DNA from: Comamonas fluminis
GTDB lineage: Bacteria > Pseudomonadota > Gammaproteobacteria > Burkholderiales > Burkholderiaceae_C
Length of the DNA: 64,000 nucleotides
Direction of reading: 5' to 3'
NCBI RefSeq assembly: GCF_019186805.1
Contig: NZ_CP066783.1
Coordinates: forward strand, 1,308,501 to 1,372,500
Made by a program: the position numbers and the translations under genes
The notes under the pieces: model-generated
Databases searched by the model: none
What the model was told of the DNA's origin: nothing
What the model saw: only the letters and a program-made list of their open reading frames with translations
Shown here: piece after piece, positions 7,536 to 8,939 of the stretch
Numbering within the stretch: the stretch's first letter is position 1
Layout: each line of letters begins with the position of its first letter

Positions 7536-7633
7536 CTTGCTGAAAACTATAGCAGCGCTCCTGTCTGCCTGGGCTGCTGTTGCGCGGCGGTGTTGTAAGC
7601 GTTCTTTAGAGCCGCTTGTATGTTTACGGTGTC

Positions 7634-7833
7634 GGGGTGAGGGACAAGAGTCGCTATCGGCTGTTTGCGCAGACCGACTGAGTTAGATCCCTCCCACCCC
7701 ACCTCATAGCGTCGATAAGGAACTGAGCAGCACGTAGCCATCAGGCTGCGTGACTGCCGATCTGAAGGCAAGCCAACGCACGTAGGTGGAACAGGCACCC
7801 CGACAAGCCATTGTCTTTGTTGGAGGTGCTGTT
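7634..7833 (+). ncRNA. Candidate IS110 bridge RNA region
   Basis: IS110-group elements are known to encode a bridge RNA in the non-coding end upstream of the recombinase. Here 200 bases directly before the transposase fold into two clear structures. The first is a long stem, GGGGTG-AGGGA (7634-7644) with TCCCT-CC-CACCCC (7688-7700, two-base bulge), enclosing AGTCG/CGACT (7649-7653 with 7675-7679) and an internal loop. The second is a 9-bp hairpin with one G-U pair, CACGTAGCC-ATCA-GGCTGCGTG (7731-7752). Internal loops inside long stems are what a bridge RNA needs. The assignment is inference from position and fold. Confidence 0.5.
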
Positions 7834-8778
7834 ATGCAAACGACCTTTATCGGAGTGGATGTCTCCAAAGCGGAGTTGGTCATCAGCGTTGGTGATCAAG
7901 CTGCCGTGAGCGTGACCAATGACACATCTGCGATCATGCGCTGGTTGGCCTCGTTACCCCAAGATTGCTCTGTCGCCATGGAATCTACAGGGCGCTACCA
8001 CTTGCTGCTCGCACAACTGGCTTTGCAAGCAGGGCTGAATGTGTATGTGCTCAATGCCCGGGATGTGTTCTTTTATGCCAAGGCACTGGGCGCCAGGGCT
8101 AAAAGCGATGCTCTGGACTGCGTGGTGATTCGGCGCTATCTGCAGGAGCATGTTCAAAGCCTGTATCCCTGGCAGCCTGGCACACCCGTTCAGCAGCAGC
8201 TCCATCTCTTGCTGACTCGACGTGCGCAGCTTAGCGCGCACCAGGCAGCCTTGAAGCAGACGCTCAAGGCGGTTGACTTACCCGGGCCGCAGATGGTGCA
8301 CTTGATGGAATCGTTCAAAGCCCTGCTGCAGGCCATTGATGAGCAGGTTGTGCACCTGATCTCCAGTGACGACGCCATGCACCAAGGCTGCCAGCGACTG
8401 CAGTCGATTACAGGGATTGACCCACAAACCAGTGCACTGCTGACAGAGCTTTTAAGTCGCCTGCACTTTGCCAACTCGGACGCACTGGTTGCCTATAGCG
8501 GGCTGGACCCTCGTGCCAATGACTCTGGCACAAAGCGTGGGAGGAGGCGTTTAAGCAAACGAGGCCCAGCCTTGCTGCGCAGGCAGATGTATCTGGCCGC
8601 ATTCGCTGCCAGCCACAGCAAAGCGCTCAAGCCGCTTTATGCGCATATTCGCGCTAAGGGCTTCTCAACGACAGAGTCGATGGTGATCTTGGGGCGTAAG
8701 CTGCTTCGAGTGGCCCTTGCTGTTTGGCGAGGCAATACGGTGTTCAACCCCGAGCAATTGCTGCCGAAAACTGCTTGA
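7834..8778 (+). CDS. IS110 family transposase
   Basis: This 314-residue recombinase combines an N-terminal RuvC-like DEDD domain with a C-terminal transposase_20-type domain. Visible residues are Asp9 in IGVDVSK, Glu in VAMEST, and Asp in AKSDALDCVVI. The C-terminal half has the helix-hairpin-helix-like SITGIDPQTS, the SGLDP motif, and SKRGPALLRRQ, which carries the conserved serine thought to attack DNA in this family. I chose ATG 7834, preceded by GGAGG eight bases upstream; the frame is open for 48 bases further, but that part overlaps the structured leader. Length and domains are complete, so the enzyme looks intact. It acts by RNA-guided recombination if the leader really is a bridge RNA. 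Confidence 0.95.
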   Translation: MQTTFIGVDVSKAELVISVGDQAAVSVTNDTSAIMRWLASLPQDCSVAMESTGRYHLLLAQLALQAGLNVYVLNARDVFFYAKALGARAKSDALDCVVIRRYLQEHVQSLYPWQPGTPVQQQLHLLLTRRAQLSAHQAALKQTLKAVDLPGPQMVHLMESFKALLQAIDEQVVHLISSDDAMHQGCQRLQSITGIDPQTSALLTELLSRLHFANSDALVAYSGLDPRANDSGTKRGRRRLSKRGPALLRRQMYLAAFAASHSKALKPLYAHIRAKGFSTTESMVILGRKLLRVALAVWRGNTVFNPEQLLPKTA

Positions 8779-8791
8779 CGCGAAACATAGA

Positions 8792-8902
8792 ACCTAACAC
8801 CACCCAGCGAACCGAAGGTTTGCGGTTGAGACGAGGCGCGAAGCCGCAGGCAGTACAAATGTACGACAAGGCGAAGCTACGACGTATAAAGGGTTGTGTT
8901 AG
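8792..8902. repeat. Structured segment trailing the transposase gene
   Basis: The ends form an imperfect inverted repeat (CTAACACCACCC at 8794-8805 and GGGTTGTGTTAG at 8891-8902). Inside lie short hairpins, including GTAC-AAAT-GTAC. It may be the right end of the IS110-family element or a separate repeat it is inserted beside. The left end also matches the integron inverse-core pattern RYYYAAC, but the right end does not match GTTRRRY, so I do not call it attC. Confidence 0.4.
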
Positions 8903-8939
8903 CGGGTCTTAGCAAACAAGGCTGCCCGCTGCGGCAGCA

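What the first reader, a model, noticed from the sequence alone, without database searches (positions are those of the whole stretch)
7634..7833. Structured leader of the IS110-family element looks like a bridge RNA
The 200 bases just before the transposase fold into a long bulged stem with an internal loop (7634-7700) and a separate 9-bp hairpin (7731-7752). IS110-group recombinases are guided by a bridge RNA encoded in this position, whose loops pair with target and donor DNA. A programmable RNA-guided recombinase with its own guide may therefore be intact here.
Basis: partly seen in the sequence, partly recalled or inferred. Interest (0 to 1): 0.72.

Follow-up and report, generated by a model that had tools for sequence, protein, structure and literature searches.

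The report
Bridge RNA of an IS110 element
The stretch before this jumping gene encodes a guide RNA of the known 'bridge RNA' kind, and its two loops can be read: one matches the DNA the element inserts into (the end repeats of another, unrelated jumping gene), the other matches the element's own ends.

Summary
The leader is a bridge RNA. The element (7615-8793, 1179 bp, core CT) encodes a 314-aa DEDD/Ser recombinase. Its predicted RNA (7630-7805) folds better than all 200 shuffles (z -4.19). A covariance model from 12 relatives, no window copy among them, finds it as its only hit in 64 kb (E 4.8e-33); base pairs covary. The first loop matches the flanks: in 12 elements, window copy included, left guides fit their own left flank (77 of 84; permuted 41.2; 0 of 200,000), and in 12 elements right guides fit their own right flank (44 of 60; 23.6; 0 of 200,000). 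The second loop matches the element's ends. Joining the ends puts promoter-like boxes 17 nt apart. The target is the terminal repeat of an IS5-type element and of a genus-wide palindromic repeat with the same arms. The window copy's recombinase alone has Gly196Asp, at a site that is Gly in 24 of 24 relatives: the guide is intact, this copy's enzyme may not be; the other copies lack the change. It is a new member of a known kind. The one unusual feature is a likely closing helix joining the RNA's two ends. Activity is untested.

The parts
7615..8793 (+). complete IS110-group element, 1179 bp, counting one core dinucleotide
   Evidence: ends found by comparing copies at different sites; three sister copies identical to each other over 1181 bp
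7608..7614 (+). left half of the target site, AGAGCCG
   Evidence: flank of the element; AGAGCCG also left of L002, L003 and L004, AGAGTCG left of L005
7615..7616 (+). left core dinucleotide CT
8794..8800 (+). right core CT and right half of the target (AACAC)
8775..8780 (+). -35-like TTGACG in the right end, overlapping the stop codon; meets the -10-like box only in the circular form, 17 nt apart
   Evidence: TTGA 17 nt from TATG in 11 of 11 elements with both ends read in full, and in L047, whose first core base I supplied; layout only, no chance control, related elements
7619..7624 (+). -10-like TATGTT in the left end
   Evidence: predicted start of transcription near 7630-7632 (inference)
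7630..7805 (+). predicted bridge RNA
   Evidence: fold z -4.19; covariance model hit 7629-7805, E 4.8e-33
7630..7639 (+). 5' strand of closing helix P0 (pairs with 7796-7805)
   Evidence: in the RNAalifold consensus of the 12 relatives
7796..7805 (+). 3' strand of closing helix P0
7640..7692 (+). target-binding loop: basal stem 7640-7644/7688-7692, apical stem 7657-7664/7669-7677
   Evidence: apical stem has compensatory changes at 6 of 9 pairs in relatives (helix 3)
7647..7655 (+). left target guide AGAGUCGCU (one G.U against AGAGCCGCT; exact for the target of copy L005)
7680..7686 (+). right target guide GAGUUAG (6 of 7 against CTAACAC)
7687..7688 (+). putative handshake positions AU of the target loop
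   Evidence: by position against IS621 as described in PMC11208158; the second could pair with donor position 6 (A), the first cannot with position 7 (C) (inference)
   Evidence: closing-stem strands fit their own partner, 0 of 20,000 permutations, 11 elements
7717..7724 (+). left donor guide AAGGAACU against element right end ATAGAACC
   Evidence: sequence; LDG base and donor position 7 agree in 13 of 13 elements (9 C/C, 4 T/T)
7769..7772 (+). right donor guide CAAG, preceded by G7768, against CTTGT of the left end
   Evidence: sequence; CAAG invariant in the 13 aligned leaders
7773..7774 (+). handshake positions CC of the donor loop; the first can pair with target position 7 (G)
   Evidence: C or U in the first place and target G7 in 11 of 11 elements with both; nothing varies enough to test covariation
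7834..8778 (+). IS110 DEDD recombinase, 314 aa, ATG start, SD GGAGG 7822-7826
   Evidence: Pfam DEDD_Tnp_IS110 and Transposase_20; NCBIfam NF033542 above cut-off; model closest to ISCro4 and IS621
8419..8421 (+). codon 196, Asp here, Gly in the other copies and in relatives
7609..8908 (.). short palindromic repeat (about 121 bp without the element) interrupted by the element; 3-bp TTA at both ends (7606-7608, 8909-8911)

Best explanation
The leader encodes the bridge RNA of an IS110-group element. When the element is excised as a circle, its right end (-35) and left end (-10) join to make a promoter that transcribes the leader. The RNA folds into two arms. The first arm's internal loop holds two guides that pair with the two strands of the target AGAGYCG-CT-AACAC. 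The second arm's loop holds guides for the element's own joined ends, ATAGAAC-CT-TGTAT. The DEDD/serine recombinase uses this RNA to bring both DNAs together and recombine them at the CT core. The target lies in the terminal inverted repeats of an IS5-type element and of a dispersed palindromic repeat with the same arms, so each repeat arm is a landing site. Shown here by computation: element ends, core, target, guide-target matching across relatives, conserved RNA structure, layout of the junction promoter. Inferred from the published IS621 work: transcription, binding, catalysis and circle formation.
For: Anchored left guides fit their own left flank: 77 of 84 in 12 elements (window copy included) against a permuted mean of 41.2 (sd 5.5), 0 of 200,000 permutations; with one element per cluster of similar guides the true assignment is the best of 5040 orders in both subsets tried. 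Right guides, 12 elements: 44 of 60 against 23.6 (sd 3.6), 0 of 200,000. Free search of the leader, not anchored: left (12 elements) 0 of 100,000, right (13 elements) 126 of 100,000; left with one per cluster, 2 to 3 of 5040. Six of 12 left guides match all 7 flank bases. Covariance model without the window copy: single hit, E 4.8e-33. Structure counts beat all 500 shuffles on all five measures. Promoter-like boxes 17 nt apart across the joined ends in 11 of 11 elements with both ends read in full, and in L047. Recombinase model: the 11 best Foldseek hits are ISCro4 and IS621 chains from complexes with bridge RNA, TM 0.72-0.75. Nine of nine sites with AGASCCGCTAAC, among the 24 pattern hits, overlap copies of the palindromic repeat.
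Against: No RNA or activity data. The window's right target guide has a mismatch at one position and its left donor guide is imperfect (one mismatch, two wobbles in 8). One of the two handshake positions in each loop lacks its partner. The window copy's enzyme has a unique substitution. Own scores for L044 and L086 are only 5 of 7 on the left and for L082 2 of 5 on the right; in the free search L044 fits some other flanks better and L086 peaks at the wrong place. One relative (L053) has the left end but no recognisable right end or matching leader and was left out. The target-loop outer stem alone gave no significant strand-partner signal (1670 of 20,000). The genome pattern, at two mismatches, is no more frequent than its reversed control (24 versus 45 matches), so only the closest sites are informative. 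In the model the loop holding the catalytic serine (228-241) has pLDDT under 50.
Confidence: 0.94

Rival explanations
1. The leader is only a regulatory 5' untranslated region that hides the ribosome-binding site of the transposase gene, as described for ISPpu9, and does not guide anything.
For: In the window's leader the sequence around CACCCCGACAA can pair with the region of the Shine-Dalgarno box (duplex -20.7 kcal/mol), and over 11 elements own partners are better than permuted ones (314 of 20,000). PMC8450116 (passages read) reports such repression in ISPpu9, a member of the same family.
Against: It does not predict that loop sequences follow each element's insertion site, or promoter boxes brought together only when the ends join. 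RBS pairing is weak in L049, L051 and L052. Regulation could exist besides guidance.
Confidence: 0.03
2. Target choice is made by the recombinase protein reading DNA, and the similarity between leader loop and flank is left over from past insertions or shared repeats.
For: Several relatives (L049, L050, L082) share one target type, and the window copy and L048 share the IS5-type repeat.
Against: Matches occur on both strands at fixed places of the loop in elements with unrelated targets; with one element per cluster the true pairing is the best of 5040. IS621 has been shown to work by RNA (PMC11208160, sections 4, 5, 6 and 12 read).
Confidence: 0.02
3. The unit was a bridge RNA system but this copy is dead.
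For: Gly196Asp is found only in the window copy. The position lies in a Gly-Ile-Gly turn conserved also in IS621 and ISCro4.
Against: Reading frame, D9, E50, D92, D95 and Ser231 are present; in 24 relatives these are invariant except one N at 92. The guide RNA is identical to that of the other copies, and those could act in trans. The effect of the substitution is untested.
Confidence: 0.35

Closest known systems
IS621 (IS110 group) bridge RNA system, PMC11208160 and PMC11208158
   Same: leader position upstream of the gene, target loop first and donor loop second, 5' side of each loop pairs with the bottom strand and 3' side with the top strand, CT core, junction promoter, DEDD plus Ser recombinase, insertion into dispersed palindromic repeats
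   Different: recombinases 24-25% identical in the structural alignments; different guides; predicted closing helix joining both RNA ends, and no separate 5' stem-loop in the window's RNA
IS1663-like elements (name taken from NCBI for a Comamonas piscis protein, 80% identical)
   Same: probably the same subgroup (inference from protein identity)
   Different: leader and guides of that record were not read
ISEc21 seekRNA (IS110 type), PMC11187229 (passages read)
   Same: upstream non-coding region, order of bottom- and top-strand matches, target in another insertion sequence, natural re-direction between relatives
   Different: ISEc21's target is inside an IS3-family transposase gene; here it is a terminal inverted repeat
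IS1383 inserting into the inverted repeats of IS1384, and IS4321/IS5075 into Tn21 ends (titles seen in reference lists only)
   Same: one element using the terminal repeats of another as landing site
   Different: other elements; IS4321 and IS5075 are IS1111 type; details not read

Membership tests
IS110 group with bridge RNA | DEDD RuvC-like N-terminal domain and C-terminal Transposase_20 domain with conserved Ser | tested here: met
IS110 group with bridge RNA | long non-coding left end upstream of the gene holding the RNA, short right end | tested here: met
   left end 219 bp, right end 15 bp (and coordinates)
IS110 group with bridge RNA | structured RNA with two internal loops, conserved in relatives | tested here: met
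IS110 group with bridge RNA | first loop complementary to both strands of the target, varying with the target | tested here: met
IS110 group with bridge RNA | second loop complementary to the joined element ends | tested here: met
   sequence; imperfect in the window's left donor guide; donor ends vary little, so covariation rests on one change shared by four elements
IS110 group with bridge RNA | promoter rebuilt at the circle junction | tested here: met
   11 of 11 with both ends read in full, plus L047; layout only, no expression data
IS110 group with bridge RNA | RNA is made, is bound and directs recombination | not testable with these tools
   needs RNA-seq, binding and recombination assays
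IS1111 group | bridge RNA in a long right end | tested here: not met
   RNA is in the left end; the right end is 15 bp
IS1111 group | subterminal inverted repeats of 7-17 bp | not tested
   no search of the element ends for inverted repeats was made
Rfam families | match above the gathering score | tested here: not met
   weak chance matches only

The most novel reading that the evidence does not exclude
Bridge RNAs of this Burkholderiales subgroup have their own architecture: a closing helix (P0) joins the RNA's 5' and 3' ends so that target arm and donor arm leave a three-way junction. Its 5' strand is shared with the outer target-arm stem, so the RNA could switch between a closed and an open form during synapsis.
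Probability: 0.4. Interest if true: 0.55.

Novelty: new member of a known kind. Interest (0 to 1): 0.4.

Why it matters
It is a small, readable bridge RNA system whose recombinase is about 25% identical to that of IS621, with ends, core, guides and target worked out and a set of naturally re-programmed relatives. That makes it a ready test object for what the guides tolerate and for alternative RNA architectures. Its target, the terminal repeats of an IS5-type element and of a genus-wide repeat, shows how an RNA-guided element can be aimed at the spread of another mobile element. For the field as a whole the result is expected rather than surprising, since bridge RNAs were already predicted in 85.7% of IS110 elements (PMC11208160, section 12 read).

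Tried and rejected
A switch in which P0 frees the Shine-Dalgarno box when the target arm opens: not supported by folding. Forcing P0 lowers the box's mean unpaired probability from 0.20 to 0.01.

Rfam as a source of a bridge RNA family: no match. The palindromic repeat as a described RNA: no Rfam match over the repeat in eight copies. An integron attC site was considered and set aside because the copies are scattered through the chromosome; it was not tested further.

More relatives from plasmids and viral contigs: none. The one scan of genome contigs gave one locus. Genome searches, at differing E-value limits and own genome included each time, gave 4 of 399, 2 of 399, 3 of 53, 8 of 399 and 6 of 369 genomes with a match.

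An allele of the window's site without the element: in nine congeneric loci (L104-L112, of the 16 fetched, one of them the window's own) neither the palindromic repeat nor the element is found by blastn, so the repeat probably arrived after these lineages split, and no strictly empty site was found. L113-L118 were not examined.

Rows dropped before the counts: L046 (same leader and flanks as L044), L053 (no right end, leader not alignable), L006 and L007 (distant). L047 and L051 lack a left flank and L086 lacks a right flank, so each was used only where possible; L052 (only 4 flank bases) was in the free right-guide test but not in the anchored one; P0 counts used 12 elements without L085; the duplex tests used 11, without L048 and L085.

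A first test of the target-loop outer stem used a window that cut the strand short (432 of 20,000); repeated with the full strand it gave 1670 of 20,000, not significant. The first joint alignment (A3) misplaced the 3' strand of P0 in some rows, so P0 was counted on hand-placed strands.

Full report
What was checked first. Rfam has no match at its own thresholds in the window. The gene behind it is an IS110 recombinase: Pfam PF01548 and PF02371, NCBIfam NF033542 at 175 bits with a cut-off of 140. The ATG at 7834 with GGAGG at 7822-7826 gives 314 aa.

Element ends. The genome holds five copies at 99-100% protein identity, one of them truncated by another insertion sequence, and two weak distant matches. 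Comparing their flanks gives left end CT-TGTATG and right end CATAGAAC-CT, so the element is 7615-8793 with CT as core. Copies L002, L003 and L004 are identical over 1181 bp; the window copy differs at two bases, one silent (7893) and one giving Gly196Asp (8420); the leaders of all five copies are identical.

Relatives. Related elements were taken from genome searches. Fourteen loci (L044 and L046 having the same leader and flanks, L045, L047-L052, L082-L086; 37 to 74% protein identity by tblastn) carry a leader of the same kind. Right ends of the form ATAGAA[CT]-CT were found in all of them except L086. Left ends CTTGTATG were found except in L051 and in L047, where the available sequence starts inside it.

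Guides. The first loop carries, on its 5' side, the bases that stand left of the element, and on its 3' side the reverse complement of those to its right. In the window: AGAGUCGCU against AGAGCCG-CT (one G.U pair), and GAGUUAG against CT-AACAC (one mismatch). The truncated copy L005 has AGAGTCG as its flank, an exact match. The guides change with the site: L083 guide TTAGCGG, flank TTAGCGG; L052 ATCCGGG, ATCCGGG; L084 ATGTCCG, ATGTCCG; L049 CGACAGG, CGACAGG. Six of 12 left guides match all seven bases. With guides placed by their position in the loop, 12 elements (window copy and 11 relatives) give 77 of 84 for the left side against a permuted mean of 41.2 and a maximum of 69.5 in 200,000 permutations. 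Twelve elements give 44 of 60 for the right side against 23.6, 0 of 200,000. Without anchoring, the left signal stays at 0 of 100,000 and the right is weaker, 126 of 100,000. Weak rows are L044 and L086 (5 of 7 each on the left) and L082 (2 of 5 on the right).

Donor side. The second loop has GAAC or GAAT where the element's right end has GAAC or GAAT (9 and 4 of 13); the four T cases are probably one event. It has CAAG against the CTTG of the left end. The base after CAAG can pair with target position 7, which is G in 11 of 11 elements with both data, as expected for the handshake pairing described in PMC11208158 (sections 7, 8 and 11 read); since it does not vary, this is agreement, not covariation.

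RNA structure. The predicted RNA 7630-7805 folds at -73.6 kcal/mol, z -4.19. A covariance model from 12 relatives without the window copy has one hit in the window, 7629-7805, 132.5 bits. On that alignment 91.3% of cells pair, 12 of 30 pairs have changes on both sides, no shuffle of 500 reaches any of the five measures, and sliding the partners drops pairing to 36-46%. The donor-arm closing stem, poorly aligned there, was tested by duplex energy: each strand fits its own partner better than others' (0 of 20,000 permutations, 11 elements).

Promoter. Joining right and left ends puts TTGA at a 17-nt spacing from TATG in 11 of 11 elements whose two ends were read in full, and in L047, where I supplied the missing first core base. 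In the window this gives TTGACG-17-TATGTT; L048 has TTGAAT. These elements are related and no chance control was run, so this is a layout that fits the published junction promoter, not a test of one. The predicted start is at the first bases of helix P0.

Closing helix P0. In the window TGTCGGGGTG (7630-7639) can pair with CACCCCGACA (7796-7805) over all 10 positions. In 12 elements the third pair is T-A in four and C-G in eight, always paired; the fourth is C-G in six, T-A in three and mismatched in three. Over all positions 107 of 120 pairs form, permuted mean 101.8, 176 of 100,000; over the four outer pairs, which the target arm does not use, 38 of 48 against 34.3, 885 of 100,000. By duplex energy 119 and 198 of 20,000 permutations are as good. 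RNAalifold chose P0 by itself for the 12 relatives. These tests do not remove relatedness, so I call P0 likely rather than shown. With the start region of the gene included, the unconstrained fold prefers the target-arm stem over P0. [quoted passage not shown] Other architectures among IS110 relatives are mentioned there, so P0 may not be unique; the words 'three-way' do not occur in the main text of that paper or of PMC11187229, and figures were not seen.

Target. The sequence right of the element in L001, L002 and L004 is a palindromic repeat; 12 places in the genome match it, some partly, and 25 of 31 genomes of the genus searched carry it, own genome included. In L002 the repeat lies in the opposite orientation, so both arms are used. 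Its arms, GAGCCGCTAACACCACC, are also the ends of an IS5-type element of about 0.9 kb in congeneric genomes: in 8 of 11 loci examined the end has an inverted copy, 15 to 18 of 21-22 bases, some 850 bases away; two loci gave 13 of 22 and one no hit (no chance control). Pfam DDE_Tnp_1 and DUF4096 match the copy beside L003. Three of three repeats carrying an element have the same 3-bp TNA at both ends, and of the eight others printed three do by eye (L009, L015, L016), as a transposed unit would. So the repeat is best read as a small non-autonomous relative of that IS5-type element. L003, and L048 in another species of the genus, lie at the right end of such an IS5-type element. The element thus lands in the terminal repeats of another element; IS1383/IS1384 and IS4321/Tn21 are precedents by title.

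Protein. The AlphaFold model (pLDDT 85.3; 228-241, with the catalytic serine, under 50) matches ISCro4 and IS621 chains best (TM 0.72-0.75), then TIGR-Tas proteins (query TM 0.54 and below). D9, E50, D92, D95 and S231 stand where IS621 has its catalytic residues in the printed alignment; the roles of the four acidic residues are recalled, Ser241 of IS621 is in the paper text. They are invariant in 24 relatives except one N at 92, and residue 196 is Gly in 24 of 24.

Verdict. The system works like IS621 in every feature that could be tested here. It is a new member of a known kind. What remains open is activity, the effect of Gly196Asp, and whether P0 is a real part of the working RNA. The genus is taken to be Comamonas from an NCBI name on an 80% identical protein; the genome itself is unnamed.

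Noticed in passing
window 7609-7614 and 8794-8908; L009-L018: Genus-wide palindromic repeat of about 110-140 bp whose arms equal the terminal repeats of an IS5-type element; some copies (L016, L017) keep the core but have different arms that still largely pair with each other.
   Followed up: partly
G000:C2 about 386,600-390,400 (L003, L005): Cluster in which IS110 copies sit on both sides of an IS3-type and an IS5-type element; L005 is cut short by the IS3-type element, and the two copies may occupy the two terminal repeats of one IS5-type element.
   Followed up: partly
window 8419-8421: The window copy alone carries Gly196Asp in the recombinase.
   Followed up: yes
L049, L050, L051, L082: Several relatives carry guides for TTCGACAAGCTCAGCCCGAACGG-like sequences, apparently a second kind of repeat used as target.
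   Followed up: no
L104 (G817): At the orthologous intergenic site another insertion with ends that look like inverted repeats (GAGCGTGTTCACGATC, GATCGTGAACACGC) is present.
   Followed up: no
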